A DNA stretch of 64,000 nt from Shewanella sp. Lineage in GTDB: Bacteria > Pseudomonadota > Gammaproteobacteria > Enterobacterales > Shewanellaceae. This document shows, piece by piece, positions 6,175-47,384 of the stretch (its first letter is position 1; each line of letters opens with the position of its first letter). The translations under genes and the position numbers were made by a program. Under the pieces are notes generated by a model. The model had not been told where the DNA came from. It made no database searches and saw only the letters and a list, made by a program, of their open reading frames with translations. The DNA lies in NCBI GenBank assembly GCA_028223395.1, contig JAOIUG010000002.1, positions 1 to 64,000 on the forward strand, read 5' to 3'.

Positions 6175-6418
6175 TTGGCTGTGATTTACAGTGGTTACGT
6201 TATCAGGCTGACTTTCACTGCGATTGAGTCGGTAGTGGTGCTTAATTAATAATATTCAGTATTCTCATTTGCTACTTGATCTTAGCTTCTCTGACTGGCA
6301 TAGTGCTACCAAGTTGTAATGGTGTAGCGTTACAGTGTTACGGTCTGTGATTGTAAAATTAAGCCATCATTCAGGCAGGTAAGTTTTAACGCTAACGTAT
6401 TTAAATCAGGTGATAAGT
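6175..6418 (+). other. Leader/promoter region of aroF
   Basis: No gene between the rplS terminator and aroF. A TyrR-like half-site TGTAAA is at 6352-6357 but its other arm is poor. GTTAC words recur around 6328-6342 (TGTAA...TTACA). No convincing leader peptide was found. Confidence 0.35.
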
Positions 6419-7510
6419 ATGCAGCAAGATCCAATTAACAATGTTCATATTAGCTCAGAGACAGTATTGGTCACTCCTGAGGAGTTAAAACACGCGTTGC
6501 CACTGTCTGCACATGCGAGCCAATACGTGATTAATGCACGTAAAACTGTCTCAGATATTGTTCATAAACGAGATAACCGCGTGTTGGTGATCGCAGGTCC
6601 TTGTTCAATCCATGACATTGATGCAGCGAAAGAGTACGCACTGAAGCTTAAAAAACTGCATGATGAGTTAAGCGGTCAATTCTACATATTGATGCGGGTA
6701 TACTTTGAAAAGCCCCGTACAACAGTGGGCTGGAAAGGAATGATTAACGATCCGGATATGGATGAATCATTTGATGTTGATAAAGGTTTGCGCAAAGCTC
6801 GCGAGCTGATGATTTGGCTTGCTGAGCTAGAATTGCCTGTAGCGACTGAAGCGCTAGATCCTATTAGCCCGCAATACATGTCTGAATTGATCACTTGGTC
6901 GGCAATTGGTGCTCGTACAACCGAATCGCAAACGCACCGTGAAATGGCATCAGGATTATCGATGCCGGTTGGCTTTAAAAATGGTACCGACGGTAAATTA
7001 GGCGTAGCAATAAACGCCTTAGAATCGGCCGCGAGCAGCCATCGTTTTATGGGCATTAACCAAAAAGGTCAAGTTGCACTGCTGCAAACTGCTGGCAATC
7101 CAGACGGACATGTGATTTTACGCGGCGGTAAAGCGCCCAACTATAACGCTGCAAGTGTGGCTGAATGTGAGCAGCAGTTGCATGCAGCCGATTTAAATGC
7201 ACGCTTGATTGTCGATTGTAGCCACGGTAATTCCTCAAAAGATCATAATAAGCAAATGCCAGTGTGTGAAGATGTCTTCAAGCAAATTGTGAACGGCAAC
7301 CAGTCGATTATTGGCGTAATGCTAGAAAGCCACCTTAATGCGGGCAAGCAAAGTAGTGATTTGCCGATTGATGAGCTCGCTTATGGTGTGTCAGTTACCG
7401 ATGCATGTATTGATTGGCTGACGACCGATACATTACTGCGCCGTGGAGCGGCAGACTTAGCTGCTGTATTGTCTACAAGGTTTGATATGCTAAAAGCTGC
7501 AAACGGCTGA
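6419..7510 (+). CDS. aroF: 3-deoxy-7-phosphoheptulonate synthase, tyrosine-type (class I alpha DAHP synthase)
   Basis: 363 residues. Condenses phosphoenolpyruvate and erythrose 4-phosphate to DAHP, the entry step of the shikimate pathway. Seen: GPCSIHD metal/PEP motif near residue 61, [40 protein letters not shown] and [11 protein letters not shown]. The N-terminus [11 protein letters not shown] closely matches the tyrosine-regulated AroF isozyme rather than AroG or AroH. The ATG at 6419 has AGG eight bases upstream; a GTG at 6410 is the alternative. The neighbouring tyrA supports tyrosine biosynthesis. Confidence 0.96.
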
Positions 7511-7524
7511 TGGAAGAGAGAGTC

Positions 7525-8664
7525 ATGAACGAGAAAACCACTGCAGAGCTTGAAAACCTAAGAGGCTTAATTGATGGTGTTGATCAGCAGCTTCTACATT
7601 TACTGAGAAAGCGCCTTGATTTAGTTGCCCAAGTTGGCGCGGTAAAACATGGTGCAGGTTTACCGATTTATGCGCCGCAACGTGAAGCGAATATGTTAGC
7701 TAAACGCCGCGCGGAAGCGCAAGCGATGGATATTGAGCCGCAGCTTATTGAAGATATTTTACGCCGTTTAATGCGGGAATCTTACCTTAATGAAAAGGAT
7801 GTTGGCTTTAAGCAAGTCAAAGCTGACTTAGGGCATGTGGTTATTGTTGGTGGCGAAGGTAAGCTTGGCGGTTTATTTTCGCAAATGCTGACATTATCAG
7901 GTTATGAAGTTAAGTCTCTCGATAAGGATGACTGGCTCAATAGCCAAACCATTTTTGACGGCGCAGGCCTCGTTATTGTTACTGTGCCTATCAATATCAC
8001 CTGTGAGCTGATTGTCAGTCAACTGACCACGTTACCTAATGATTGTATTCTTGCAGACTTAACTTCAATTAAGAGTGCGCCAGTAGAGGCGATGTTGGCT
8101 GCGCATAATGGACCTGTGTTAGGGTTGCACCCGATGTTTGGCCCAGATGTCGGCAGTTTAGCAAAGCAAGTGGTTGTGGTTTGTCATGGCCGTAGAGAGT
8201 CAGAGTATCAGTGGCTGATTGAGCAAATTAAAATTTGGGGCGCTCGCATTGTTGAAGCTGAGCCAAGTAAGCATGATAAAGCGATGCAATTAGTCCAAGC
8301 AATGCGTCACTTCTCTTCGTTTGTGTATGGATTAAACTTGTACAAAGAGAATGCTGATATCGGTTCATTATTACAATTTAGCTCGCCAATTTATCGCTTA
8401 GAATTGGCGATGGTGGGACGTTTGTTTGCTCAAAGCCCTGAGTTATATGCCGATATTATTTTTGCTCAAGAAGAGAGTCTAGTGGCGATTAGTGATTATT
8501 TAGATAATTACTCTCAAGCACTGTCTATCCTAAAATCGGGTAATCGCACTGCCTTTATTGAACAATTTACTGAAGTGTCCCGCTGGTTTGGTGATTTCGC
8601 GCCACAGTTTCAACGTGAAAGCCGGGCAATGTTGCAGTCAGTTAACGATATGAAGACCGGCTAA
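7525..8664 (+). CDS. tyrA: Bifunctional chorismate mutase / prephenate dehydrogenase (T-protein)
   Basis: 379 residues (Escherichia coli TyrA: 373). An AroQ chorismate mutase domain (about 1-90) converts chorismate to prephenate; an NAD-dependent prephenate dehydrogenase (about 100-379) makes 4-hydroxyphenylpyruvate for tyrosine. [10 protein letters not shown] (109-118) is the nucleotide-binding loop and [10 protein letters not shown] the substrate block. The ATG at 7525 is chosen over 7510 because GGAAGAGAG sits just before it; the upstream ATG overlaps the aroF stop as TGATG. Forms an operon with aroF. Confidence 0.96.
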
Positions 8665-8726
8665 GGCAAAGCCCTAAGCTTCAGGCTGATGAACAGCCGT
8701 TTTGAGCATAAATGAATACATTTAAT

Positions 8727-9025
8727 AAAAGGCGCTAGGGGCTGTTGATCTTTCACGGTTGTTTTTGCCGCAGTTTATTGGCTATTTTGACAAGGCGGAG
8801 GCTATGACGTTGAGTTATTCTCCACAAATAGTCTACAACACAGTCAAAATAGCCAAGACACGCGGCCCTTTGGGTTCGTTTCAATTCTTTTATTCTTTTA
8901 TGACGAGGGTGCGTGACGTGCTTTTCACTTAGGCAGCTAAGCATCATCGCTCAAGCCTTGTACTAAAATAATTAAATTCGAACAAAAACTAAGCTCGAAA
9001 GATCAACAGCCCCTAGGCGTCTTTT
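8727..9025 (+). terminator. tyrA terminator split by a mobile element
   Basis: The arm AAAAGGCGC (8727-8735) and the arm GCGTCTTTT (9017-9025) can pair over nine positions with one G-T pair. Without the ~280 bp insert they would sit three bases apart (TAG loop) and be followed by T, which is an intrinsic terminator right after tyrA. The insert lies in the loop. Confidence 0.6.
8735..9016. mobile_element. MITE-like non-autonomous element, ~280 bp
   Basis: Bounded by a 20-bp perfect terminal inverted repeat: CTAGGGGCTGTTGATCTTTC at 8735-8754 and its reverse complement at 8997-9016. TA or CTAG at both ends may be the target duplication. It encodes no complete transposase; a 64-codon minus-strand frame (8753-8947) fills most of it but has no recognised domain. 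A second, solitary copy of the left end (25 of 25 bases identical at first) is at 47440. Size, repeats and lack of a transposase fit a MITE; I cannot name the parent insertion sequence. Confidence 0.75.
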
Positions 9026-9189
9026 TGTATTTGGCTGTTGCGCTCAGGCCGCTGCTGATAATGCTAATCAGTACTCTATTTATCCATCTCTGTCGAAATA
9101 GTTGTCATCCCCCTTGGTTTTATGATGTTTGTTTCTCCATGTTACCTATTGAAAACAAGAATATTATCTATTTTTACATCGGTACTTTT

Positions 9190-9219
9190 ATCACTTTATT
9201 AGTGAACACTAAAAGTGAT
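9190..9219. repeat. Imperfect inverted repeat upstream of hcp
   Basis: ATCACTTT (9190-9197) pairs with AAAGTGAT (9212-9219) and TAGTG with CACTA inside it, with a two-base loop. It could be a regulator site or an RNA hairpin. Confidence 0.4.
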
Positions 9220-9292
9220 CTCTTTCATAGTTTCAGCCTTTGATCATCGAAAGTGCTTTTGCAAATTTTCAAGGAGCGTAGACTAACCTTAA

Positions 9293-9315
9293 AACATGTA
9301 AATAATATGCATGAT
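9293..9315. promoter_or_regulatory. Putative NsrR operator before hcp
   Basis: Dyad AACATGTAAAT-A-ATATGCATGAT resembles the two 11-base half-sites of the NsrR operator (AAGATGYATTT and its complement). NsrR controls hcp-hcr in many gammaproteobacteria. The match is imperfect, so this is inference. Confidence 0.4.
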
Positions 9316-9336
9316 TAAGTTATAGGAGTGAGTGTT

Positions 9337-11001
9337 GTGTTTTGTATTCAGTGTGAGCAAACAATTAGAACGCCTGCGGGCAATGGCTGTAGTTATTCTC
9401 AAGGCATGTGTGGAAAGTCTTCAGATACTTCAGATTTACAAGATCTTCTTATCTATATTTTACAAGGTGTATCGTCCTACGCAGCCTTAGCTCGTGAAGT
9501 CGGTATTGTTGATTATGAGGTTGATACTTTTGTGCCAAAGGCGTTTTTCGCAACGCTGACTAACGTTAACTTTGATGATGAGCGTATTATTGCTTATACC
9601 ACTGAGGCTGAAACGTTCCGTAATCGCTTAAAAACAGCTTATGAAGCTAAGTGTAGTGAGCTAAATATTCAAGCCAAGCCAGTTAATGCGCCCATGCAGT
9701 TGGTACTGGGCATAACTAAACCTGAGATGCTATCGCAAGCGCTTCAAGCAGCGCCTAATCGTGGTAAAGATGAAGTCCATGAAGATATCATGGGTTTGCG
9801 CTTACTTTGTTTATACGGTCTTAAAGGCGCCGCGGCTTACATGGAGCATGCTCGGGTTCTTGAGCAAACTAATGATGAAGTGGCGGGAGAATTTCACCAA
9901 ATCATGGCTTTTCTTGGTGAAGACTCTGTCGATGCTGACAAGCTGTTTGAAACCGCAATGCAAATTGGTCAGCTTAATTATCGCGTTATGGCCATGCTTG
10001 ATGAAGGTGAGACACATGCATTTGGTCACCCAGAGCCCACGCAAGTGAACACCAAATCTGTCAAAGGTAAAGCGATTTTAGTGTCGGGCCACGACATGAA
10101 AGACTTAGAGCTTATCTTGCAACAAACTGAAGGTAAGGGCATCAACGTATTCACTCACGGTGAAATGCTGCCAGCACTTGCTTACCCAGAATTGAAAAAA
10201 TACCCGCACCTTGTCGGTAACTACGGCAGTGCATGGCAAAATCAACAAAAAGAGTTTGCGACTTTCCCAGGCGCAGTGGTGATGACTTCTAATTGTATTA
10301 TCGATCCTAACGTGGGCGATTATTCAGATCGGATCTTCACACGTAGTATTGTTGGCTGGCCTGGTGTTAGTCACATCACCGGTGATGATTTCAGTGCCGT
10401 TATCGCTAAAGCTGAGGCTTTAGAAGGTTTTGCTTATGATGAGATCCCCCATCTAATCACTATAGGCTTTGCTCGCAACGCACTTATGGCTGCAGCGCCA
10501 ACGGTCATTGATAATGTGAAAAGTGGTGCTATTAAGCATTTCTTCTTGGTTGGTGGTTGTGACGGTGATAAGCAGGAGCGTGGCTACTTCACTGATATCG
10601 CTACTCAAGCGCCTGATGATTCACTGATCCTGACTTTAGGTTGTGGTAAGTACAAGTTCAACAAACTTGAGTTTGGTGATATCAACGGGATCCCACGTTT
10701 ACTGGACATTGGTCAGTGTAACGACGCTTACTCAGCAATCCAACTTGCTATGGCACTTTCAGAAGCATTTGAATGTGACATCAATGCGCTTCCTTTGACT
10801 TTGGTACTGTCTTGGTTTGAGCAAAAAGCGATTGTGGTATTGCTGACGTTACTGTCTCTTGGAGTGAAGAACATTCTTACTGGTCCAACGGCGCCAGCGT
10901 TCCTCACTGCAAACCTAGCGAACGTGTTAGAAGACAAATTTGGACTGCGCACTACAACAACTGTAGAAGCGGATCTTAATCGCATTCTAAACGTGGCGTA
11001 A
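9337..11001 (+). CDS. hcp: Hydroxylamine reductase / hybrid cluster protein (NO reductase)
   Basis: 554 residues (Escherichia coli Hcp: 550). An iron-sulphur protein with a 2Fe-2S cluster and the Fe-S-O hybrid cluster; known to reduce hydroxylamine in vitro and nitric oxide, and to take part in protein S-nitrosation. The N-terminal cysteines C3, C6, C18 and C25 have the C-x2-C-x11-C-x6-C spacing of the facultative-anaerobe class. Hybrid-cluster motifs such as [21 protein letters not shown] and [10 protein letters not shown] are present. The GTG at 9337 (MFCIQCEQT) is chosen because AGGAG lies eight bases upstream; the GTG at 9328 overlaps that site. hcr follows. Confidence 0.96.
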
Positions 11002-11029
11002 CTGCGCGTTTAGTTGGTGATGAGTGAGT

Positions 11030-11059
11030 AAAAATGGCCACGTATATGTGGCCATTTTT
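11030..11059. terminator. Bidirectional terminator-like hairpin between hcp and hcr
   Basis: AAAAATGGCCAC (11030-11041) is the exact complement of GTGGCCATTTTT (11048-11059), giving a 12-bp stem with a six-base loop and T5 in the stem's 3' arm. It would stop or weaken read-through from hcp into hcr. Confidence 0.75.
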
Positions 11060-11082
11060 AGCTCACCGATAGGAAAAGAGCA

Positions 11083-12171
11083 ATGACAAATAGTATGAAT
11101 AGACAAACCACAGAGCCATTCACTGCTGAGCAGTGGCAAGCGGGCGAACATCAATTGGTTTGTGTGGAAAAATGGCATGAAACGCACGATGTCATCAGTT
11201 TTCGCTTCCAAGGGGTAAAACCGGTAAAGTTTCACTTTAAGCCAGGACAGTTCCTCACATTATTGCTAGAGGTTAATGGTGAGAAAATCGGTCGCAGCTA
11301 CACTATCAGCTCATCACCATCTCGCCCATTTTCGATTGTGCTTACAGTTAAGCAGATTGAAGGTGGCAAAGTATCTCACTATCTTGCTAACAACCTAGAC
11401 GTTGGCCATGTTGTGCGCGCGCTTGGCCCAGATGGTGCATTTAACCTGATAGATATCGACGCTGATAAATACCTGTTTCTAAGTGCTGGCTGCGGGATCA
11501 CGCCGATGTACTCGATGTCTAGATGGTTAGCGGATACGCAAATCAGCCCAGATATCGCTTTTCTACATAGTGCTAAGTCAACTAACGATCTGATTTTCAA
11601 GCAATCGCTTGAGCAGATGGCTGATCGCAGTGACCAGTTTAAGCTTAACTATCTGTTAGAGACGCTAGATAATGAGCCATGCGCTTATGTCGATGCTGAA
11701 GCTGGACGGTTATCAGCTGACAATTTGCAGCGCCTGGTTGCAGATTTTCACAGCCGCACTGTATTTGTGTGTGGCCCTGAGCCTTATATGGTGGCAGTCA
11801 AAGCATTACTTGGATCACTAAATTTTAATATGGCGCAGTTTAATCAAGAAAGCTTTGGGGCTTTTAACGGCGATACCGCGACATCAAATAAAACAAGCGA
11901 GAGCAATGATAAAGCAGGTTTTATGCTGCGCATTGGCAATAGCAGCCGTAAACTGAGTGCTAAGCAAACAGTGCTTGAAGGAATTGAGGCTGAAGGTCTG
12001 CCGATTATTGCTGCCTGCCGTTCGGGGGTTTGTGGGGCGTGTAAATGCAAGGTGCTAGAAGGGCAAACTGAATCGAGTAGTGACATGTCATTGACTGCAG
12101 ATGAGATCGCTCAAGGTTATGTATTGGCGTGCTCAACAACACTGAACTCTAATGTCACACTGGCGCTTTAA
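11083..12171 (+). CDS. hcr: NADH oxidoreductase Hcr (electron donor to Hcp)
   Basis: 362 residues in three parts: FAD-binding barrel with RSYTIS at 71-76, NAD-binding domain with GCGITPM at 136-142 and CGPEPYM at 230-236, and a C-terminal plant-type 2Fe-2S ferredoxin with C312, C317, C320 and C350. It passes electrons from NADH to the hybrid cluster protein. The ATG at 11083 is preceded by AGGAAAAGAG. The gene lies 81 bases after hcp, with a hairpin in between. Confidence 0.93.
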   Translation: MTNSMNRQTTEPFTAEQWQAGEHQLVCVEKWHETHDVISFRFQGVKPVKFHFKPGQFLTLLLEVNGEKIGRSYTISSSPSRPFSIVLTVKQIEGGKVSHYLANNLDVGHVVRALGPDGAFNLIDIDADKYLFLSAGCGITPMYSMSRWLADTQISPDIAFLHSAKSTNDLIFKQSLEQMADRSDQFKLNYLLETLDNEPCAYVDAEAGRLSADNLQRLVADFHSRTVFVCGPEPYMVAVKALLGSLNFNMAQFNQESFGAFNGDTATSNKTSESNDKAGFMLRIGNSSRKLSAKQTVLEGIEAEGLPIIAACRSGVCGACKCKVLEGQTESSSDMSLTADEIAQGYVLACSTTLNSNVTLAL

Positions 12172-12423
12172 ACGCGGCCTCTTTACTGTTTATGTCATGC
12201 TTGTACAACCTGTACAGTGATGATTAAACGCAGTGAATATATTTTATTTTGTATGGCTCTATTGAGCGGGCATAACTTGGTCGCTTGAGCCGCTAAATTA
12301 CGAGTCTAAAGTTCTCTTTAAGCTTTTGTTCTGAAGTTTGTTTTTTGAGCTTTGCGTGTGGGCCGTGCGTATTTTAGTGATTTTAAAGTTGCGAAATTTA
12401 TAACGAGAAAGTAAGGTTAAATA

Positions 12424-12813
12424 GTGGTCATGATTGCACTTTTGGCTGCCTTTTCTTTTTTGACGGAGTGGCCTATGGGATCAACAATACATTCTGACGC
12501 TTTACCCTTAGCAGACAAAAGTCTTGCGCACATGCTTTATGGTTTGATGGCTTGTTTTCCCATTTTATTATTACCCGCATTGTTAAGCTTGTTTATTAAC
12601 CTTAATCAGCCTCTTCATTCTTTAAATGCCGTACTTGCATCACACCTCAAGTGGCAGCGTTGGTCTACATTAGGCATGCTATTGATAGTGACAGCAGCTT
12701 ATTTGAACAGCCATGTTTGGGTCAGCACAGGCTTATATATTGTAGGGATCATTTGGTTTAGTAGCCGTATTGTTAAAGGCTGGGTTAATTTGATAGAAGA
12801 TCGCCGCATCTAG
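12424..12813 (+). CDS. Small membrane protein, DUF4870-like (COG3671)
   Basis: 129 residues with three hydrophobic stretches (about 36-58, 76-92, 96-112). The pattern SHLKWQRWSTLG followed by a C-terminal IWFSSRIVKGWVNLIE resembles the predicted transmembrane proteins of COG3671/DUF4870, whose function is unknown. GTG at 12424 is preferred to ATG at 12430 because AAGG lies seven bases before it. It follows hcr by about 250 bases and has its own terminator; no link with nitrosative stress can be shown. Confidence 0.6.
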   Translation: MVMIALLAAFSFLTEWPMGSTIHSDALPLADKSLAHMLYGLMACFPILLLPALLSLFINLNQPLHSLNAVLASHLKWQRWSTLGMLLIVTAAYLNSHVWVSTGLYIVGIIWFSSRIVKGWVNLIEDRRI

Positions 12814-12887
12814 CCGACTGTAGTGTATGCATGATCTGGTTACCAACAAGTCATACAGACTCTTTCCCGCGAAAAATCCCCTAACTT

Positions 12888-12930
12888 GCAGATAAAAGCA
12901 TTGAGTTACAAATGCTTTTATCTGCTTTTT
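12888..12930 (+). terminator. Intrinsic terminator between convergent genes
   Basis: A 15-bp perfect stem (12888-12902 with 12911-12925), eight-base loop, followed by T5. It ends the 12424 gene; on the other strand it follows pheA by a few bases but lacks a T run there. Confidence 0.85.
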
Positions 12931-12935
12931 GTTTT

Positions 12936-14921
12936 TTATTCGCGGTATAAATTGCTGAGTAATGATTGAAGCTGAGCTTCACTTTCGTCTGTAAACGGCA
13001 ATTTAGGGACGTTAATGACTAGACCATCAGCACCTAATTGTTTAATCGCGATGGTAAACTCCGGTAGCTGCTCAGCCGCTATTGCATTACTAGGGTTGAC
13101 CAATATGGGTAAGTGACAAGCTGTTTTTAGCGTCACTAATGCGGCGAGATCCAGTGTAGGTTTACCGGCATTATTAAGTGTGCTTACGCCGGATTCACAT
13201 AGTGCTAATTGTTGGTTACCTTGGCTTAAAATAACGTCTGCAGCACTGAGTAAATCGTCAACGCTGGCCATGGCATTGCGCTCTAAAATGATGGGTAAGA
13301 GTAAAGAGCCAAGCTGGGAAAGCAGCGCTTGATTGTACATCTGGGTGCCAGATAACATGATGGCATCACCAAGCTGCGCCGCAACGGCTAAGTCAGTGTC
13401 ATGCTCGACAGTTAATACACACATCAATCCGCACTGCGTTAGGGTGTTTTTACACTGGGTGAGTGATGCAAGTAAATCGCTTTGTTGGCTTAATCCATGA
13501 ATGTTTACGGCCTGAAAGCCCATTTCTTTGAGGGTTTTAGCTTGTTGTTCAAATTCAGTTTGCACCAAAGGCAACGATAACTGGGCAATGGCGCCAGTAT
13601 GTTTGTCCCCGAACACTAATTGACCACAGACTATTTGTGTCGGTTGCTGTTTGTAGGCTTTACTGTAACGCTTGTGTTGATTGCTCACGGTACTTGGCGC
13701 GGACTCTTCTATGGTAATATCAGCTTTTGAAGTGCTGGGTTCAATCATTAACTGGCTATTACTGAGCTGGGTAGGGTTGACCGTTTCACAAGGGTAACAG
13801 CCAAGTACTTTAATGAAGCGTGTGGTTCTTTCTAACTCTTTAAGGGCTGCTTGCATGGCTTCATTTGATAAATTTGCGTCGATATCGAGGTAGAACATTT
13901 CTTCCCACGGAGTACCTGCAATAGGGCGAGACTCTAGCTTACTCATGTTGAGATTTCTGGCTTTTAAGATCAATAAAGCTTCAACCAGTGCGCCAGGTTT
14001 TTGTCCTGTGGCCATAATCAAAGTACATTTAGCGGGGAGTTGTTCTGGCACCTCAACGGCTTTACGCGCCACAACAATAAAGCGACTTTGATTGATTTTT
14101 TGATTGGCTAAATCGGTTTCTAATGCGTCAAGCTGATATAACGCTCCGCCTTCACTACTGCCTATGGCGGCCACGTTGTTATCATTAGCGTTGGAGACCT
14201 TCTCCATAGCTTCAGCACTGCTTGAGCAATATTCTAATTTAAAGTGGCTATGCTGGCTAAGGTAGCGGCTGCACTGACTAATTGGCTGGGGATGAGCGTA
14301 AAGAGTGTTAATCGCACTTAGTTTTGTGCCACTTTTAGCCAATAAGCAATGGCCTACCTCGATGGTCGTTTCACCGACAATGGCTAGACTGGTATGTTGT
14401 AATAGATCATAAACCTCGTTAATAGAGCCCGATGAAGTGTTTTCTATCGGTAAAAAGCCGTAATCGGCATGGCCAGATTCAACGGCTTGTATAATGTCAT
14501 CAAAACTTTGGCAGCCGAGATCTTGCATGTCGACTTGACGCCTGTTGCAGTAACGGCTGGCTGCTAAGTAAGAATATGAGCCTCTTGCACCTAAGTAAGC
14601 AACGCAATATTGCTGTTGCTGAGTTTGTGGATTGGCACGGCCATGTAGGTATGCTTGTTGATTGAGCACTGAATCTTCGATAATACTCTGATAAAGAGAG
14701 ATCACGTAATGTGCATCGAGCCCTTGTTCACGGCCTTGCTTGACTAAGCGCGCGAGCAATTCTTTTTCACGTTGGGTGTCGCGTATTGGCCTGACATCCA
14801 CTTCTTTACTGCGTGCGACGTCTAAGCTCAATGCACGACGCTTCGCTAAGAGGGTTAAGAGATCATTATCGAGCGTGGTAATTTGTTCTCGAGTTTGGCT
14901 TAAAGGTTGTGGTTTGCTCAT
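12936..14921 (-). CDS. pheA: P-protein: chorismate mutase / prephenate dehydratase with extra DAHP-synthase-like domain
   Basis: 661 residues against 386 in Escherichia coli. Chorismate mutase (1-95) keeps R11, R28, K39, R51, E52 and Q88; prephenate dehydratase (about 105-285) and an ACT regulatory domain (about 298-378, with GALV at 310-313 and ESRP at 330-333) follow. The conserved Thr of the dehydratase TRF motif is Ser here (SRF, 279-281). After a polar linker, residues 428-655 resemble type I-beta DAHP synthase: LLSAADVILSQGNQQLALCES, TLDLAALV and HLPILVNPSN line up with its core. Metal and substrate residues are mostly lost (DPSH is NPSN, the Glu of IEVH is Asn637, KRG is ERN), so this part is probably not a working synthase. 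Makes phenylpyruvate for phenylalanine; controlled by the attenuator upstream. Confidence 0.95.
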   Translation of the reverse strand: MSKPQPLSQTREQITTLDNDLLTLLAKRRALSLDVARSKEVDVRPIRDTQREKELLARLVKQGREQGLDAHYVISLYQSIIEDSVLNQQAYLHGRANPQTQQQQYCVAYLGARGSYSYLAASRYCNRRQVDMQDLGCQSFDDIIQAVESGHADYGFLPIENTSSGSINEVYDLLQHTSLAIVGETTIEVGHCLLAKSGTKLSAINTLYAHPQPISQCSRYLSQHSHFKLEYCSSSAEAMEKVSNANDNNVAAIGSSEGGALYQLDALETDLANQKINQSRFIVVARKAVEVPEQLPAKCTLIMATGQKPGALVEALLILKARNLNMSKLESRPIAGTPWEEMFYLDIDANLSNEAMQAALKELERTTRFIKVLGCYPCETVNPTQLSNSQLMIEPSTSKADITIEESAPSTVSNQHKRYSKAYKQQPTQIVCGQLVFGDKHTGAIAQLSLPLVQTEFEQQAKTLKEMGFQAVNIHGLSQQSDLLASLTQCKNTLTQCGLMCVLTVEHDTDLAVAAQLGDAIMLSGTQMYNQALLSQLGSLLLPIILERNAMASVDDLLSAADVILSQGNQQLALCESGVSTLNNAGKPTLDLAALVTLKTACHLPILVNPSNAIAAEQLPEFTIAIKQLGADGLVINVPKLPFTDESEAQLQSLLSNLYRE

Positions 14922-14954
14922 GGATGCCTCGGGTTTTATTGCGCGCTAAGCATT

Positions 14955-14981
14955 AAAAAAGCCTCCCGTGTGGGAGGCTTT
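14955..14981 (-). terminator. Terminator hairpin of the pheA attenuator
   Basis: On the minus strand GCCTCCC (14978-14972) pairs with GGGAGGC (14967-14961), followed by a run of T. The upstream segment GGAGGC at 15021-15016 can instead pair with GCCTCC of this stem, which gives the antiterminator, and can also pair with CCTCC at 15033-15029. That is the usual four-segment attenuator. Confidence 0.88.
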
Positions 14982-15000
14982 GGAATTTTCATTTTCGTTT

Positions 15001-15075
15001 TTACACCGAAATTCCGCCTCCGAAGGTGGGAGGTGTAAAAAAGAAAAGAAAAAATGCAGTGTGAATTTTATTCAT
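15001..15075 (-). CDS. pheL: phe operon leader peptide
   Basis: 24 residues, MNKIHTAFFLFFFTPPTFGG.., with six phenylalanines in eleven residues (8-18). Ribosome stalling at these codons when charged tRNA-Phe is scarce would cover the first attenuator segment and let the antiterminator form, so pheA is transcribed. The gene overlaps the first two attenuator segments, as in Escherichia coli pheL. There is no clear ribosome binding site, and the best promoter would start transcription at or next to the ATG. Confidence 0.85.
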   Translation of the reverse strand: MNKIHTAFFLFFFTPPTFGGGISV

Positions 15076-39002: not shown

Positions 39003-39944
39003 TTAAAATCGTGCTTGCAAAAACTCGTCGAAGCCGATCTTATCTACTATGGCGCCTTTATGTTGGATAACATAGGCGGCAGATTGTGCTGCCATGTTGA
39101 TAGCCTCGAAGTCATTGATGCCATTGAGCTTCGCGCCTAAATATACCCCATTGAATGAATCTCCCGCCGACGTAGTATCAACCACGTGCTTAACGGGGCT
39201 GACTTGTATCTCTTGAGGTTGGCCATCGTTTAGGCTTTGGGTAACCACAATCAGTGATGCTGGTCCGTTTTTGATGATCAGTTCCGTGATGGGGTAAGGA
39301 GCCAAAAAGTCGATAACTCCTTGTGCTGTGTCGATGGAGAACAATTGCTCAAAATCGTCTACTCCTGGTAGAACTGTTGATGCTTTTGCGAAGGCTAATT
39401 GGAACTGAGCCTTGGCCTCGCCTGGGCTTGACCACATTCTAGGGCGATAATTGGGGTCAAAGACAATCTGTACGCCCGCTTGTATTAATTGGTCAACCAT
39501 ATGCCAAAAGCTTGCTCGGGCATTCGGTTCAATGACGGCGATAGAGATCCCCGAAAAGAAAAACATATCGCCTTGGCTAAGCTGAGCGATGGCAGCATCA
39601 TTGATATGCTGCATAACCTGGCGAGCTGCTGAGTTTTCTCGCCAATAGGTAAAACTACGCTCGCCGTTGTCATCGAGATCGATAGCATAAAGCCCTGGCG
39701 CTTTGTTTTTAGATTGAAATACCAGATCAGACTGAATATTTTCATCTTTAAAACATGTCATCATGTTCTGACTAAACCTGTCTGTGCCAACGACGGTGAC
39801 TAAGTGAACATTGGTTTTTGGAAACGCCCGCTTAAGATACACCGCAGTGTTATAAACATCGCCGGCGAAAGATTGCTTCATGGTATTCATCGAGGTATTC
39901 ATTAACTCAATCATACATTCGCCAAGTAAATAAATGTTCTTCAT
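39003..39944 (-). CDS. kdgK: 2-keto-3-deoxygluconate kinase
   Basis: 313 residues, PfkB/ribokinase family. Phosphorylates KDG to KDPG, which an Entner-Doudoroff aldolase (not in this window) would split. The anion-hole/catalytic motif DTTSAGDSFNG carries the base D262; the substrate-side MIELMN and FAGDVYNTAVYL match KDG kinases rather than fructokinases. AGGGA precedes the ATG. Last gene of the five-gene alginate operon, 62 bases after the transporter gene. Confidence 0.9.
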   Translation of the reverse strand: MKNIYLLGECMIELMNTSMNTMKQSFAGDVYNTAVYLKRAFPKTNVHLVTVVGTDRFSQNMMTCFKDENIQSDLVFQSKNKAPGLYAIDLDDNGERSFTYWRENSAARQVMQHINDAAIAQLSQGDMFFFSGISIAVIEPNARASFWHMVDQLIQAGVQIVFDPNYRPRMWSSPGEAKAQFQLAFAKASTVLPGVDDFEQLFSIDTAQGVIDFLAPYPITELIIKNGPASLIVVTQSLNDGQPQEIQVSPVKHVVDTTSAGDSFNGVYLGAKLNGINDFEAINMAAQSAAYVIQHKGAIVDKIGFDEFLQARF

Positions 39945-40006
39945 TAACGGGTCCCTATCTGTTTAAACTCTAAATTTAACTGCCAATGTTCACTCAATAT
40001 CGTTGT

Positions 40007-41299
40007 TTAGCGCTTGCAAACTGGCGCTATTTTAGGGATCAGTATCCATACAGCAGCAATTGCAATAACGGCTAACGAAGCGCCAATAACAAACGCTGGG
40101 GTATAGTTACCATCAGCGGTTAAGTAGGGCACGAGCGCCGTTAACCCCAAGGCGCCTAGTTTGGCGGCCATGCCAGATAAGCCTGCGAGGGTACCCACCG
40201 CCTTTTTACCATATAAGTCACTGGGTAAAGTCTGCACATTACCAATAGCGGTTTGAAACCCAAATAAGATCACCGCCATAATCAGCACTGCTGTGGTGGG
40301 GGCGCCAGGATCTGCCATTGCAAGCAAGGCGGGTAGCATGATCAGGCAACCTAAGGTGATTGTGAATTTTCGCGTGCGGTTTACACTCCAGCCGGCTTTG
40401 AGGCGATTTTGAGCGAGTAAACCACCACACCAAGCGCCTAACATTGCGCCGACATAGGGAACCCAGCCGTAGATACCAATCGATTTAACATCCATACCAT
40501 AAACTTCATTAAGGTAGATGGGGATCCAGAAAACAAATAGCCACCAAATCGGGTCGATTGCTGCAGAGGCAATAATCACGCCCCAACTTTGTTTATGGCA
40601 TAACAACTCTTTGGTCGTTGGGTTGTATTCTTTGGCATCGGGTTGTTCCTCAGGAGTACATTTTTGTCCCGTGAGGATGTATTCGCGTTCTTCTTCAGTG
40701 ATCCATGGGTGAGATTGAGGCGGTGCTTTAACTAAAATTATCCATGGGATAAGCCATAACAGACCAATTAAACCGATAAGAATAAACACCATTTGCCAGC
40801 TGAAGTACACGGTCATATAGGCGATAAGTGGGATAGACACGATGCCACCGATGGCCGCACCAGAATTGAAAATTCCCTGTGCTAAGGCGCGTTCTTTGGT
40901 TGGAAACCAATCGGCGTTGCTTTTTGCTGCACCTGGCCAGTTTCCGGCTTCAGCCACACCTAATATGGCTCTGAAAATTGAGAAACTTAATACCCCTTGG
41001 GCAAATGAATGGGCTGCGGTTGCCAGCGACCAAACGCCAATTGATAACACAAAACCCAACCGGGTGCCGAGCCAGTCAAAGATTTTACCAAAAATGGCTT
41101 GGCCAAATGCATAGGAAAAAATGAACACAATGGAGATGTTGGCATAAATTTGCTTACGTTCCAGTGTTGTTTTATCTGGAAAAATCTCTTCGACGATATC
41201 TGGCCAAAGCACGCTTAAGGCAGAACGATCGATATAGTTGATCACGGTGGCCAGGGCGATGAGCAAAATGACCCACCATCTTAAATTAGTCATTTTCAT
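40007..41299 (-). CDS. MFS hexuronate transporter (ExuT-like)
   Basis: 430 residues, 12 transmembrane segments. Matches the anion:cation symporter branch of the major facilitator family: NYIDRSALSVLWP (21-33), GVAEAGNWPGAAKSNADWFP and the FNSGAAIGG helix are typical of ExuT/GudP-type uronate carriers. Probably takes up unsaturated mannuronate/guluronate or DEH made by the lyases. Its ATG overlaps the kdgF stop by four bases (ATGA), so it is translationally coupled. Confidence 0.88.
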   Translation of the reverse strand: MKMTNLRWWVILLIALATVINYIDRSALSVLWPDIVEEIFPDKTTLERKQIYANISIVFIFSYAFGQAIFGKIFDWLGTRLGFVLSIGVWSLATAAHSFAQGVLSFSIFRAILGVAEAGNWPGAAKSNADWFPTKERALAQGIFNSGAAIGGIVSIPLIAYMTVYFSWQMVFILIGLIGLLWLIPWIILVKAPPQSHPWITEEEREYILTGQKCTPEEQPDAKEYNPTTKELLCHKQSWGVIIASAAIDPIWWLFVFWIPIYLNEVYGMDVKSIGIYGWVPYVGAMLGAWCGGLLAQNRLKAGWSVNRTRKFTITLGCLIMLPALLAMADPGAPTTAVLIMAVILFGFQTAIGNVQTLPSDLYGKKAVGTLAGLSGMAAKLGALGLTALVPYLTADGNYTPAFVIGASLAVIAIAAVWILIPKIAPVCKR

Positions 41300-41643
41300 G
41301 ATGCGGCCTCAAGAAAGTCTTCGCGCGCTGGACTAAAAGTATCGATTAATATTCCACCGGTAGGGCATGTTGCGCCATGGTCTGTGTGAGGCGGGATCAT
41401 ACAACTGTCACCGGCCCTTAAAATTTGGGTTACGCCATCAATGTTAAAGTGAAACTCGCCTTCAACAACGTAAGTCACTTGAGAGTGTCTATGGGCGTGG
41501 TTGTAACCAATAGCGCCTTTTTCAAACCATATTTTTACCGCCATGAGTTCATGATTGTACCCAAGCATTTGACGCTTTAGGCCGCCACCGATATCTTCAA
41601 TTTCAGTTTCATTTCCAAAGGAAAAATGTTTACTTTGCGTCAT
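41296..41643 (-). CDS. kdgF: KdgF, cupin converting unsaturated uronate to DEH
   Basis: 115 residues, a single cupin. Metal ligands H49, H51, Q55 and H89 sit in NHAHRHSQ and HTDHG, and TFSPAREDFL closes the domain, as in KdgF. KdgF opens 4,5-unsaturated monouronate released by lyases to the linear ketone that enters the KDG route. Overlaps PL17 by four bases upstream and the transporter by four bases downstream. Confidence 0.9.
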   Translation of the reverse strand: MTQSKHFSFGNETEIEDIGGGLKRQMLGYNHELMAVKIWFEKGAIGYNHAHRHSQVTYVVEGEFHFNIDGVTQILRAGDSCMIPPHTDHGATCPTGGILIDTFSPAREDFLEAAS

Positions 41644-43922
41644 TTTGACTCCCGCTGAGTAATGTCTAATAACTGGTATCTATCCGCGAAGCGATATGGC
41701 TTGTCGTTATAGTAAAAGCTATTCAGGTTTGACGTTTTAAGGTTGTTTTTAGTGTGGTTAGATTGTGCTTTATCTGAGATTGCCAAGACGTACTGCTTGA
41801 TTTCACCGCTGTGAGTGGCCAAAGAGAAGCCGATGACATTGACATCGTCTTGCTTTTGAAATGACAGTGAACGTACATTGCTGGTGGCGTTTAAAGTGTA
41901 TTCGGCCGACGGGTTATATTCACCGTGGGGCTCAATGACACTGACAAAACGCTGATTTTTGGCTTGAGTCACCCGTTGGATAAAGCTATTTTCGGTGCGT
42001 AAATTAAAGTTGGGATCATTGGCTCCTAGCTGAGTGAACAGCATTTCTACGTTACCGTCAGTAATACTGCTGTGAGTGTAGAAGCGACCATTGTCGTTGA
42101 GCCAAGTGACTTGATTGATAGGTGGTTGAGCGGTGTTTGCATTTGTCGCTGATTTCGCTCGCAACCACAAGTGTTGATATCCTGCTTGAGCGCCAAGCGG
42201 CTTGAGCTCAGTTGTTGCTGCAATACGCTTAAAGTTGGTGTCAATTAGCTGCCCTTGGTAGTGCACGGGCAGATCATATTGGTGCTCATCATTGCTTTTA
42301 ACATCAACAATATCAAACACCAAAGGAACAGGGCCTTGTGGTAAATCGATAGTCGCTAATGCCATGGTTCGGGTGATCTCTATGCCCTCATATGCAGTGG
42401 CAATATTGGCCGAGGCGAGTGTCACTTTTGTATCACTAAAATAGTAATTAATGCTTGGGTGGTTGCTGTTGCCAACCTCGACATCGGCGTCAAAGTGACT
42501 GGTTTCATCTGCAACTAGGGTGTTGTGGGCAATTGTTTGCTTTGCCCAAGTTTTGTTTTCTGGTAAGTAGCGGCCACCAGCTTTGGCTTCAATGTTTAAA
42601 AATCGCGCCGCGCCGTAGTCGGAGATAATTTCATTGCCGCCATCATAAAACTGCCAAGTGAGCTTATCAAAATGGCCATGGCCTAATCCTTGTGCGGTGG
42701 CTTTAAATACCACGCTCGGTTGGCTAGGCGTTGAGTGGCGCATTACCACAAGTGCACCCTCATCGGCGTGCTTGCCATCGGTAAATAATCGAGAGCTAAA
42801 CGGGTAGTGTGTGGCGGTATTTGTTGCTATCGCCTGTGCGAGCTTTAATCCATCCCCGGTTAATAGAATGGTATCTTGTTGCTTGGCGATATCGACCAAA
42901 TTGCTGTCGGCGGTTAATCCATATGCCATGCTAACGGCAATAACCAACTCCATCGTATCAATGCCTTTACTTTTAATGGCGTCGTTCAGTGGGAAGAAGA
43001 GACCGTTGTAGCTTAGCTCTATGGTGCTATAGATGGCTTTCAACAGGATGCCATCTCGGTATTCAAAGATCTTTCGTTCAGGCTGGTTTTGCTGTAACGC
43101 TTTAGCAAAAGTCACGAATGGCAATAATGCATAGCGTTGATAATAAGGGCCTTCGTTATAATAGCCATCAGGGGAGAACAGCTCATCTAGCTGACGCAGA
43201 AATCCGCCTTTACCCGACTTTTCTAAATCATAAAGGGCGATATCCACTAAGTGAGGTCGATTAAGGACAAAGCCAGTCATGCCCACGGCTGCGGTGGCCC
43301 AAGTGCCGTGGTTATGTACCTTATTAAAGGTGTGTGGAGATTCAACCGACAAAAAGTGAGCGACTGGCAACAATAGATTTGACTCAATACTATCTATTTG
43401 TGCGGGAGACAGTGTCTCTACAATAAAGTCATAGGCTTGTATTGTGTGCACTAGCCAAACCGCCTCATTTAACCCTTGCCAAAACAGTTTGCCCTCATTA
43501 CTGCTTTTGCGTTTGGGGTGGCGAGGTAGTGTTGGATAGAGCGTTGCATACTGCAACAGCATGTCACGAACAAAGTCAGCGTATTTAGGATCTTGAGTGA
43601 GTTGATACATTATTCCTGCATCATACATATGCTGATAGTTTTTCTTGTGTCTTTCGTGGGTGTAACCGCCTCCGGCATCTGTCGGGATGGGTACATCAGT
43701 AGCTTGACCGATAAAAGTGTCGACACTGGCCTTTTTTGCAATAAATGCTTGCTGGAATAACCCTGGCTGCTCAATCGCTTCGCGCATAGTGTCGACATCT
43801 TGCTGATTGACGACCAATGTTGGGTGGTGGAGCTTCGCAGCCTGAGCGCTTAGGGGCAAGCTCATCACTATTATCACTAGGGCGTTGAATATATTTAGTT
43901 TTAGTAGGTATTTATAAGTCAT
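41640..43922 (-). CDS. Oligoalginate lyase, polysaccharide lyase family 17
   Basis: 760 residues: signal peptide (about 1-28, AQA-AK), an alpha/alpha-toroid alginate lyase domain (about 60-370) and a C-terminal heparinase II/III-like beta-sheet domain. N204 and H205 (HNHGTWA) and Y261 (NEGPYYQRY) align with the catalytic Asn, His and Tyr of the Saccharophagus enzyme Alg17C (736 residues). Expected to release unsaturated monouronates from oligoalginate ends in the periplasm. Starts five bases after the PL6 stop with no ribosome binding site of its own, so coupling is likely. Confidence 0.92.
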   Translation of the reverse strand: MTYKYLLKLNIFNALVIIVMSLPLSAQAAKLHHPTLVVNQQDVDTMREAIEQPGLFQQAFIAKKASVDTFIGQATDVPIPTDAGGGYTHERHKKNYQHMYDAGIMYQLTQDPKYADFVRDMLLQYATLYPTLPRHPKRKSSNEGKLFWQGLNEAVWLVHTIQAYDFIVETLSPAQIDSIESNLLLPVAHFLSVESPHTFNKVHNHGTWATAAVGMTGFVLNRPHLVDIALYDLEKSGKGGFLRQLDELFSPDGYYNEGPYYQRYALLPFVTFAKALQQNQPERKIFEYRDGILLKAIYSTIELSYNGLFFPLNDAIKSKGIDTMELVIAVSMAYGLTADSNLVDIAKQQDTILLTGDGLKLAQAIATNTATHYPFSSRLFTDGKHADEGALVVMRHSTPSQPSVVFKATAQGLGHGHFDKLTWQFYDGGNEIISDYGAARFLNIEAKAGGRYLPENKTWAKQTIAHNTLVADETSHFDADVEVGNSNHPSINYYFSDTKVTLASANIATAYEGIEITRTMALATIDLPQGPVPLVFDIVDVKSNDEHQYDLPVHYQGQLIDTNFKRIAATTELKPLGAQAGYQHLWLRAKSATNANTAQPPINQVTWLNDNGRFYTHSSITDGNVEMLFTQLGANDPNFNLRTENSFIQRVTQAKNQRFVSVIEPHGEYNPSAEYTLNATSNVRSLSFQKQDDVNVIGFSLATHSGEIKQYVLAISDKAQSNHTKNNLKTSNLNSFYYNDKPYRFADRYQLLDITQRESK

Positions 43923-43927
43923 GATGA

Positions 43928-46240: not shown

Positions 46241-46640
46241 GAAAAATCTCTTTATTATTGTTGTCTGAGTAACCAACCTCACTGAGCCATTGGGCTACAG
46301 CTCGACCTATTAATCGTGATGCAGTAACTTAGTTGTCGACTTATCGTTTGTTTACTAGTTGTTATTTCTTGTGGTTAACTCAACCTAAAATAAACAAAAA
46401 ATTAACAGTGGTTAGACACTAACCAATTGCTATTATGGTTGTCAACCGATTTGTGTTACCAATTTTGAGGTGGTTTGGATTTATAGTTATTACCAATATT
46501 ATTTGTTTTAGGCGGTGATTTGAGCGTGAAGTCGCAATGTTTCTGATGAAATAAAGCAAAATTCGGTTTGCGTTGGTAATGTAAATCGATATTATGGACT
46601 GTATAGAAATGTAAATGATTTAACAGTCTAAGGACTAGGT
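46241..46640. other. Divergent control region PL6 operon / gntR
   Basis: 400 AT-rich bases, no gene. Contains two quasi-palindromes, GGTTAG-ACA-CTAACC (46410-46424) and GGTTGTCAACC (46437-46447), and three copies of the alginate-locus word (next entry). Confidence 0.6.
46453..46582. promoter_or_regulatory. Putative operators shared by PL6 operon and gntR
   Basis: GTGTTACCAA (46453-46462), TTATTACCAA (46487-46496) and TTGGTAATGT (46573-46582). The word is nearly its own complement (TTGKTAMCAA), as expected for a dimeric GntR/FadR-type protein, and the regulator gene begins 58 bases later, so autoregulation is likely. Confidence 0.6.
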
Positions 46641-47384
46641 ATGAAGAGTCGGCGTATGTTTTGGCGCATAGTTGATGAGATTGAAACATCTATTGTTAAC
46701 GGTGAATATGCACCTGGTAGTCGTTTGCCGCCGGAAAGAGAGTTAGCTGAGAAATTTGATGTGAGTCGCCCGACAATACGTGAGGCGATTATTGCGTTAG
46801 AAGTTCGCGAGAAGATAGAAGTTAAAACAGGTTCTGGCGTATATGTCTTACATTCAGCAGCGACATCGGACCCGAAGAGTAAGGTTAATGCTTTCGAACT
46901 GACCCAAGCGCGTGCGTTGGTTGAAGGTGAAATTGCCGCACTTGCAGCGAAAACGATAACCGCACAAGAGCTTATCGAATTACAGAAAACACTGACGATG
47001 ATGGAAAACAGCTCATATGTAGAAGAAGCAGATGAAATGTTCCATCAGATTATTGCCGGCGCTACCCGTAACAGTGCTTTGATCAATTCTTTCCAGAATC
47101 TGTGGGCACTGAGAACCTCTAGTCAAGACATTATCGTTGATTACAACAGCGTGTGTAGCAAGGATAACCAAAAGACGTTGGATGAGCATACTGCCATTTA
47201 TGAAGCGCTGATGGCCGGCGATGCGTCGTTAGCTAGGCAAGCAATGCATAGTCACTTTAATCGACTTATCAATGTGTTATTTGACACCGTTGAAGCACAA
47301 GCATTAGAAGAAGTTAGACGTAAAAATAGTGAAAAACGCGATTTATATTCGATCAATAACTTAGTCAATCGAACCGCAGAGTAA
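46641..47384 (+). CDS. GntR-family (FadR subfamily) regulator of the alginate locus
   Basis: 247 residues: winged helix-turn-helix (about 5-72: GSRLPPERELAEKFDVSRPT, IREAI) and an FCD ligand-binding domain (about 85-220) with the metal-ligand pattern D-x3-H in DEMFHQII and later histidines (DEHTAIYEAL, HSHFNRL). Such proteins usually repress uronate genes and are released by a sugar acid. Divergent from the PL6 operon, with AAGGA before the ATG. Role as local regulator is inferred from position and from the shared operator-like word. Confidence 0.85.
   Translation: MKSRRMFWRIVDEIETSIVNGEYAPGSRLPPERELAEKFDVSRPTIREAIIALEVREKIEVKTGSGVYVLHSAATSDPKSKVNAFELTQARALVEGEIAALAAKTITAQELIELQKTLTMMENSSYVEEADEMFHQIIAGATRNSALINSFQNLWALRTSSQDIIVDYNSVCSKDNQKTLDEHTAIYEALMAGDASLARQAMHSHFNRLINVLFDTVEAQALEEVRRKNSEKRDLYSINNLVNRTAE

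What the first reader, a model, noticed from the sequence alone, without database searches (positions are those of the whole stretch)
12936..13650. PheA carries a C-terminal DAHP-synthase-like domain with most catalytic residues lost
Seen: the protein is 661 residues, and residues about 428-655 follow the complete mutase-dehydratase-ACT unit. HLPILVNPSN, QLALCES, TLDLAALV and the preceding GN motif align by eye with the core of type I-beta DAHP synthases. DPSH has become NPSN, the metal Glu of IEVH is Asn, KRG is ERN and the GPC motif is not found. Known: DAHP synthase is the first enzyme of the same pathway, and I-beta enzymes carry fused regulatory or mutase domains. Inference: a dead synthase fold kept as a regulatory or scaffold part of PheA, perhaps sensing pathway compounds or binding AroF.
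Basis: partly seen in the sequence, partly recalled or inferred. Interest (0 to 1): 0.7.

Follow-up and report, generated by a model that had tools for sequence, protein, structure and literature searches.

The report
Dead third enzyme domain in PheA
A bacterial phenylalanine-making protein carries at its end what looks like a catalytically dead copy of the pathway's first enzyme, a relic of a three-in-one enzyme that looks complete in other bacteria, and this relic is preserved by selection rather than rotting away.

Summary
PheA (12936-14921, minus strand, 661 aa) carries a type I-beta DAHP synthase fold at about 414-661 (Pfam E 2.3e-14; model Z 31.6 to the Thermotoga enzyme). Nine of ten catalytic residues are gone, including all four metal ligands. 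The bare fact is in print: a 2005 BMC Biology paper calls it a 'bizarre' aroA-I-beta 'pseudogene of unknown origin' in Shewanella oneidensis. This work adds: (1) It does not behave as a pseudogene: matches reach residue 590 or beyond in 97 of 97 genomes of the genus, and dN/dS is about 0.06. (2) Origin: full-length chorismate mutase-dehydratase-ACT-DAHP synthase fusions with all ten residues intact occur in Kangiellaceae, Iodidimonas, Planctomycetota, Actinomycetota and others; the fused synthase domains fit a single fusion. (3) The synthase part decayed repeatedly (at least 8 changes of state on the tree). (4) E. coli's bifunctional PheA groups inside the fused clade, so it probably lost the domain. 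In Shewanella the likeliest role is structural or allosteric; that role, and the activity of the intact enzymes, are inferred. Former active-site positions fixed in new states (E547, N549, N609) hint at new use.

The parts
12936..14921 (-). pheA: chorismate mutase, prephenate dehydratase, ACT and dead DAHP-synthase-like domain (661 aa)
   Evidence: ORF; Pfam/NCBIfam
14655..14891 (-). chorismate mutase (AroQ) domain, residues 11-89
   Evidence: PF01817 E 1.3e-18
14061..14603 (-). prephenate dehydratase domain, residues 107-287
   Evidence: PF00800 E 2.4e-58
13791..14033 (-). ACT (Phe-binding) domain, about residues 297-377; GALV and ESRP motifs present (motif meaning recalled)
   Evidence: weak Pfam match below cut-off; strands in model
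13683..13745 (-). disordered linker, residues 393-413
   Evidence: pLDDT under 50; raised dN against the domains for residues 385-415
12939..13682 (-). DAHP-synthase I-beta-like barrel, residues 414-661, catalytically dead by sequence
13515..13520 (-). site of the deleted KPRT substrate-binding loop (between residues 468 and 469)
   Evidence: gap in 60 of 60 main Shewanella rows
13275..13283 (-). E547-R548-N549, former KRG; E and N nearly fixed in the genus, R kept
   Evidence: E 0.98, R 1.00, N 0.95 of 60
13086..13097 (-). NPSN (609-612), former DPSH metal motif; N609 fixed in the genus
   Evidence: N 1.00 of 60; His lost
14952..15072 (-). Phe leader attenuator upstream of pheA
   Evidence: RF01859, 82.8 bits, E 5.7e-14
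15001..15075 (-). leader peptide ORF rich in Phe, read by eye
   Evidence: sequence

Best explanation
The C-terminal part is a pseudoenzyme domain: a type I-beta DAHP synthase that was once the third catalytic domain of a longer enzyme (chorismate mutase, prephenate dehydratase, ACT, DAHP synthase). That enzyme fits one fusion event, perhaps of neighbouring pheA and aroA-I-beta genes, and looks intact in other bacteria (shown by sequence and trees). In the order to which Shewanella belongs the synthase part decayed several times, and in other lineages, E. coli's included, it was probably lost altogether (read from trees). In Shewanella it cannot do DAHP synthase chemistry (inferred from lost residues), but it is predicted to fold and is held by purifying selection (dN/dS). 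Most likely it now works as a structural and allosteric part of PheA, through packing and oligomer contacts inherited from the synthase barrel, so that removing it would harm PheA stability or its Phe feedback (inferred).
For: Homology and fold: (Z 31.6, 2.3 A, 246 residues). Dead: of ten catalytic positions only the Arg of KRG is kept in most genus rows (64 of 66); seven positions are kept in 0 of 66, His in 4, the last Asp in 2. Selection: 26 (not independent) pairs among 66 genus coding sequences with PheA-part dS 0.15-1.0; median dN/dS 0.060 for the domain against 0.016 for the PheA core. Seven fused proteins were scanned, six of them intact; all pass the TIGR01361 cut-off. Single fusion: holding all 53 fused synthase domains together gives a higher likelihood, p-AU 0.94. 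Losses: fused PheA parts on one side of a branch is rejected, p-AU 6e-5; E. coli PheA sits inside the fused clade.
Against: The domain changes about four times faster than the PheA core at amino-acid level, and its match stops early in some Shewanella (590 and 616 of 661 in G001 and G060), which suits slow decay. Close relatives lack it: 6 of 14 genomes of genus g2 show a single match, in a free-standing-size frame, and the 7 genomes of g116 and g117 show none. The structural or allosteric role has no direct evidence. No activity was measured for any intact fusion. L099, with three of ten residues lost, also passes the TIGR01361 cut-off, so that cut-off does not prove activity.
Confidence: 0.7

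Rival explanations
1. Tolerated debris: the domain has no function. Selection only keeps it folded, because a misfolded tail would damage PheA.
For: PheA without the domain in E. coli, Aeromonas and several other lineages of the clade; strong erosion in family f25 (0-2 of 10 residues in the nine rows fetched, L084-L089, L091, L093, L094) and short matches in divergent Shewanella; faster change than the core.
Against: dN/dS of 0.06 is low for debris. Matches reach residue 590 or beyond in 97 of 97 genus genomes (in one, G003, PheA is split into two frames near residue 260). Some former active-site positions are fixed in new states.
Confidence: 0.3
2. Repurposed sensor: the old active site has become a new ligand pocket that tunes PheA, with E547, R548, N549 and N609 as its polar wall.
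For: K to E (0.98), G to N (0.95) and D to N (1.00) in 60 Shewanella rows. K to E together with D to N occurs in 8 of 8 rows of family f9 and in no other of the 86 non-genus fused rows, while three of five rows of f1 genus g2 (L098-L100), nearer to Shewanella in the PheA tree, keep KRG and the Asp. Synthase-part data do not reject Shewanella+g2+g115 as one clade, so the sharing may be convergent.
Against: No ligand is known. The loop that gripped substrate is gone. The free synthase-part tree grouped f9 with Shewanella, so shared ancestry or exchange is not excluded. The other two g2 rows (L092, L102) have lost KRG and DPSH to other letters. The pair of changes may only be a compensated charge pair.
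Confidence: 0.25
3. Scaffold: the barrel binds a working DAHP synthase of the same cell, such as the AroF encoded nearby, and couples first and last steps.
For: aroF and tyrA lie a few kb away in the window (6410-8664). A mycobacterial chorismate mutase reaches full activity in complex with DAHP synthase (passage in PMC10520331).
Against: The window's AroF is of type I-alpha, whose contacts differ from I-beta (type and contacts recalled). No evidence of contact was found or sought experimentally.
Confidence: 0.08
4. The domain is still an active DAHP synthase with an unusual site.
For: The fold is predicted intact.
Against: All four metal ligands, the KPRT loop and the PEP lysine are gone. TIGR01361 scores 94 against a cut-off of 267.75.
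Confidence: 0.01

Closest known systems
aroA-I-beta 'pseudogene' fused to aroQ-pheA of Shewanella oneidensis (2005, PMC1173090; passages seen)
   Same: The same architecture in the same genus, noted there in a sentence of the text and a table line.
   Different: That paper called it a pseudogene of unknown origin. Here it is under purifying selection, and full-length fusions with an intact synthase part give its likely origin.
Bifunctional P-protein PheA of E. coli K-12 (AroQ-PheA-ACT)
   Same: Same first three domains. The gene lies beside raiA with a Phe leader, as here (the window's neighbour is an S30AE/RaiA-type protein), and groups in one clade with the window's PheA.
   Different: E. 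coli PheA is 386 residues and lacks the fourth domain; on the tree it has probably lost it.
Type I-beta DAHP synthases (T. maritima 3pg8, P. furiosus 4c1k)
   Same: Fold over 246 and 240 residues, 24% and 27% identity.
   Different: Metal ligands and substrate loop are missing here; position is C-terminal to PheA.
DAHP synthase-chorismate mutase fusions (Listeria 3nvt, Geobacillus 5j6f; titles)
   Same: I-beta synthase joined to a chorismate mutase.
   Different: There the mutase is fused without dehydratase or ACT (recalled).
CM-PDT-ACT-DAHP synthase fusions found here (Iodidimonas muriae L124, Aliikangiella coralliicola L140, Virgisporangium aurantiacum L147)
   Same: Same domain order along the whole length.
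   Different: All ten catalytic positions are kept there.

Membership tests
Type I-beta DAHP synthase (functional) | DAHP_synth_1 homology over the Pfam gathering score | tested here: met
   53.4 bits against 25.5
Type I-beta DAHP synthase (functional) | TIGR01361 equivalog-domain cut-off | tested here: not met
   94.1 bits against 267.75
Type I-beta DAHP synthase (functional) | Barrel fold of the family | tested here: met
   predicted model, Z 31.6 to 3pg8, 246 residues, 2.3 A
Type I-beta DAHP synthase (functional) | Four metal ligands (Cys, His, Glu, Asp; roles recalled) | tested here: not met
   kept in 0, 4, 0 and 2 of 66 genus rows; none in the window
Type I-beta DAHP synthase (functional) | PEP/E4P-binding KPRT loop and Lys-Arg of KRG (roles recalled) | tested here: not met
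   Loop deleted; Lys is Glu; only the Arg is kept
Type I-beta DAHP synthase (functional) | Catalytic activity | not testable with these tools
   Needs an assay
AroQ-PheA P-protein | CM_2 and PDT domains, followed by ACT | tested here: met
   CM_2 and PDT over cut-off; ACT below its Pfam cut-off but its strands and helices are built in the model
AroQ-PheA P-protein | PRK10622 equivalog cut-off | tested here: not met
   542 bits against 577 over residues 1-384; E. coli PheA sits in one clade with it all the same
Pseudogene | Broken frame | tested here: not met
   Open in the window; matches reach residue 590 or beyond in 97 of 97 genus genomes; G003 is split into two frames near residue 260, outside the domain, and in G049 the match runs past a stop at the far C-terminal end
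Pseudogene | dN/dS near 1 | tested here: not met
   Median 0.060 over 26 pairs; the 25 pairs printed range from 0.014 to 0.113
CM-PDT-ACT-DAHP synthase fusion | Same domain order in one ORF | tested here: met
CM-PDT-ACT-DAHP synthase fusion | Synthase part from the same fusion | tested here: met
   All 53 fused synthase domains compatible with one clade, p-AU 0.94 with higher likelihood than the free tree; compatibility, not proof
CM-PDT-ACT-DAHP synthase fusion | Intact synthase active site | tested here: not met

The most novel reading that the evidence does not exclude
The bifunctional P-protein of E. coli and its relatives is a cut-down descendant of a trifunctional enzyme that ran the first step of aromatic synthesis and the two phenylalanine-branch steps (chorismate mutase, prephenate dehydratase) in one Phe-regulated chain, and in Shewanella the dead first-step domain was remodelled into a new regulatory pocket, with the same residue changes arising again in a second family.
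Probability: 0.25. Interest if true: 0.8.

Novelty: new variant of a known kind. Interest (0 to 1): 0.6.

Why it matters
It answers a small question left in print since 2005 (where the fused synthase came from), exposes a broadly distributed fusion that, if active, would place the pathway's first step under the phenylalanine-binding ACT domain of its last steps, and suggests that the textbook E. coli P-protein is the product of domain loss. It also gives a natural series, from intact to half-dead to dead to absent, for studying how an enzyme domain becomes a pseudoenzyme and why some lineages keep it.

Tried and rejected
Active synthase: rejected, since the metal and phosphate sites are gone. 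Pseudogene: rejected, since frame and dN/dS speak against it. Chance similarity: rejected. Fusion peculiar to Shewanella or Alteromonadales: rejected; records titled as several phyla carry it. Many independent fusions: not favoured.

Sampling limits. The 80 are 29 Shewanella, 5 Aeromonas (PheA without the domain) and 46 others, three of the 46 starting inside the protein (L183, L185, L195). Phylum names are record titles, many of MAGs, and were not checked. As a partial control, 236 genomes of the phylum of G886 (L177, titled Planctomycetota) were searched with A3 (list cut): 11 genomes show the whole fusion, 2 show the second half only (G1343 from the first base of a contig, G1372), and 2 show only the PheA part (G1260 with a stop inside, G1280 ending at a contig edge). 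Actinomycetota were not controlled in this way. In one search (369 Gammaproteobacteria, intact synthase query; list cut) most listed frames are far shorter than a PheA fusion. Of five long ones, three were fetched and have no PheA part in the synthase frame (G790, G683, G830); two were not fetched (G573 547 aa, G599 704 aa).

Rows dropped. From, 41 non-genus genomes had frames over 600 aa at the match; 34 were fetched and 7 not (G242, G229, G104, G129, G326, G457, G464), nor G348 (526 aa). Six more came, making the 40 rows. The careful PheA tree left out 10 long or divergent rows (three of them the unfused rows of family f7) and thinned 13 more from the 94, and added E. coli. The synthase tree used 53 chosen fused rows. 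Six divergent Shewanella rows were left out of the 60 used for conservation. The free synthase tree put f9, f20, f7 G460 and g115 with Shewanella, against the PheA tree; the constrained tests reached higher likelihoods, so that quick search was incomplete. In one search row L162 (Actinomycetota) was wrongly tallied under Shewanella; correct this.

Origin from neighbouring genes: in the free synthase tree the free rows nearest to the fused ones are L207 and L209, which fall among the fused rows and have no pheA in their 2.8 kb loci; the next group, seven rows, has pheA within about 2 kb in 7 of 7 genomes. So the neighbour origin is a suggestion only.

Relating decay to the number of other DAHP synthases in the genome (the list was cut) gave no clear rule: Kangiellaceae with intact fusions also hold several others. 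In one MAG (L152, Actinobacteria RBG_16_68_21) the fusion was the only type I match and no type II was found, but its completeness is not told. The pTM of the window model (0.83) against that of an intact fusion (0.61) might mean tighter docking of the dead domain; without error matrices I did not use it. Paper searches for such a fusion (open-access library only) listed none by title apart from the 2005 paper; passages of three papers were seen (PMC1173090, PMC10520331, PMC7311316), the rest only as listings.

Full report
What is there. The window ORF 12936-14921 (minus, 661 aa) is PheA: chorismate mutase (11-89), prephenate dehydratase (107-287), ACT, a disordered linker (393-413), and a C-terminal domain that matches the DAHP synthase I family (Pfam E 2.3e-14, over cut-off), NCBIfam synthase models (best E 1.1e-31) and solved I-beta synthases (best E 1.7e-21). 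AlphaFold2 gives mean pLDDT 90.9. VIA-align 2 matches residues 414-661 to T. maritima DAHP synthase 3pg8 with Z 31.6, 246 residues, 2.3 A, 24% identity, and Foldseek lists the same enzymes.

Is it dead? Ten catalytic positions were scored against P. furiosus DAHP synthase (roles recalled, not taken from a call). The window keeps one, the Arg of KRG. In 66 rows from genomes of the genus, seven positions are kept in none, His in 4, the last Asp in 2, and the Arg of KRG in 64. The KPRT substrate loop is deleted in 60 of 60 main rows. Thirty free-standing I-beta synthases fetched here score 9 (two) or 10 (28). Catalysis as a DAHP synthase is therefore very unlikely.

Is it kept? All 97 genomes of the genus searched have the protein, with matches to residue 590 or beyond; one, G003, is split into two frames near residue 260. 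In a wider family search 129 of 129 genus genomes matched the domain (my count). Among 26 pairs of genus coding sequences with PheA-part dS of 0.15-1.0, median dN/dS was 0.016 for the PheA core and 0.060 for the dead domain (Nei-Gojobori; pairs share sequences and are not independent). The linker changed faster (median dN 0.104, dS 0.585). The domain is thus under purifying selection, though less than the core. This speaks against the word pseudogene used in 2005.

Where does it come from? The 2005 paper (PMC1173090; passages seen by term search) wrote that it is bizarre that S. oneidensis has an aroA-I-beta pseudogene fused to aroQ-pheA, and lists its origin as unknown. Searching the order with the domain gave matches in 116 of 394 genomes; by frame length I count 30 in the genus and 41 others as PheA fusions, 34 of the 41 fetched and found to carry the PheA part. 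A search of named genomes with an alignment of fused proteins returned fusions in one reading frame from records titled Iodidimonas muriae, Kangiellaceae including Aliikangiella, Planctomycetota, Actinobacteria including Acidimicrobiia and Virgisporangium, Acidobacteria, Ignavibacteriaceae, Chloroflexi, Dormiibacterota and KSB1, among others. Of 40 fetched non-genus fusions of the order, 6 score 10 of 10; of the 46 non-Shewanella, non-Aeromonas rows, 40 do; three genomes are counted in both sets. No fused row scores 8 or 9. Seven such proteins, six of them intact, were scanned: all pass the TIGR01361 synthase cut-off and the Pfam cut-offs for CM_2, PDT and DAHP_synth_1. L099, which has lost three of the ten residues, also passes, so the cut-off alone does not prove activity.

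How often did it arise, decay and vanish? In the synthase-part tree (84 rows) fused and free rows need 2 changes; holding the 53 fused domains together raises the likelihood by 31 units (p-AU 0.94), so one fusion suffices. In the free tree two free rows (L207, L209) fall among the fused ones; the next free group, seven rows with support 100, has pheA within about 2 kb in 7 of 7 genomes, which suggests, without proof, that the fusion joined neighbours. In the PheA-part tree (72 rows, careful) fused and unfused rows need 8 changes, at least 5 forced by starred branches; fused rows on one side of a branch is rejected (p-AU 6e-5). E. coli PheA (L252) falls inside the clade whose basal rows are fused, with more distant gammaproteobacterial PheA as outgroup. 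The simplest reading is one fusion and several losses, E. coli's among them; sampling outside the order favours fused rows (see Tried and rejected). Intact against decayed needs at least 8 changes among the 52 fused rows of that tree. Decay is also seen in records titled Ignavibacteriaceae (L139), Pirellulaceae and other Planctomycetes (L158, L171, L202), and in Kangiellaceae and Aliikangiella (L185, L143).

A hint of new use. In 60 Shewanella rows several former active-site positions are not drifting but nearly fixed in a new state: K to E547 (0.98), G to N549 (0.95), D to N609 (1.00), A to G525 (0.98), with R548 kept (1.00). K to E with D to N also occurs in 8 of 8 rows of family f9 and in no other of the 86 non-genus fused rows. 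Of five rows of f1 genus g2, nearer to Shewanella in the PheA tree, three (L098-L100) keep KRG and the Asp; two (L092, L102) have other letters. Synthase-part data allow Shewanella, g2 and g115 to be one clade (p-AU 0.94), so convergence is possible but not proved. A remodelled pocket is one reading; a compensated charge pair is another.

How it most likely works. In intact fusions the ACT domain is expected to bind Phe, so a fused synthase would bring the first step under Phe control within one chain (inference; synthase-mutase fusions are known, and a chimeric DAHP synthase has been solved as 4grs). Once the cell relied on other DAHP synthases (Shewanella genomes G005, G010, G011, G020, G026 and G083 hold five DAHP_synth_1 matches each, KdsA-sized frames and the PheA domain included), catalysis was lost, and the barrel stayed as a structural or allosteric part, or as tolerated debris, until lost outright elsewhere. 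Which of the two holds in Shewanella needs the deletion experiment.

Expression context. A Phe leader attenuator lies upstream (RF01859, E 5.7e-14) with a Phe-rich leader ORF by eye, and the next gene upstream is of the S30AE/RaiA type, as in E. coli, so the gene is the ordinary Phe-controlled pheA of its lineage.

Verdict. After re-checking, confidence in the best explanation was set at 0.70 instead of 0.72, because the neighbour-gene origin is weaker than first written.

Noticed in passing
window 14952-15072 (-): Phe leader attenuator (RF01859) with a Phe-rich leader peptide upstream of pheA.
   Followed up: yes
window 6410-14921: aroF and tyrA are separated from pheA by a prismane/hybrid-cluster protein and a flavin/2Fe-2S oxidoreductase (9328-12171); in E. 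coli K-12 pheA, tyrA and aroF are adjacent.
   Followed up: partly
window 39003-47384: A cluster with a PfkB kinase, an alginate-lyase/heparinase-type protein, a chondroitinase-B-type protein and a GntR/FCD regulator, with a transporter-like ORF between: probably polysaccharide use.
   Followed up: partly
L112 (G003): pheA split into two frames near residue 260 in one single-contig genome of the genus; sequencing error or real not settled.
   Followed up: no
L224 (G573): A PheA reading frame of about 770-790 aa with roughly 400 residues before the PheA part: perhaps another fusion or an over-long frame.
   Followed up: no
L204 (G552): A free-standing I-beta DAHP synthase followed by a weak match to the PheA-part query (307-393) in one frame, perhaps a chorismate mutase.
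   Followed up: partly
L152 (G885): In this actinobacterial MAG the fusion is the only DAHP synthase match of type I, and no type II was found.
   Followed up: partly
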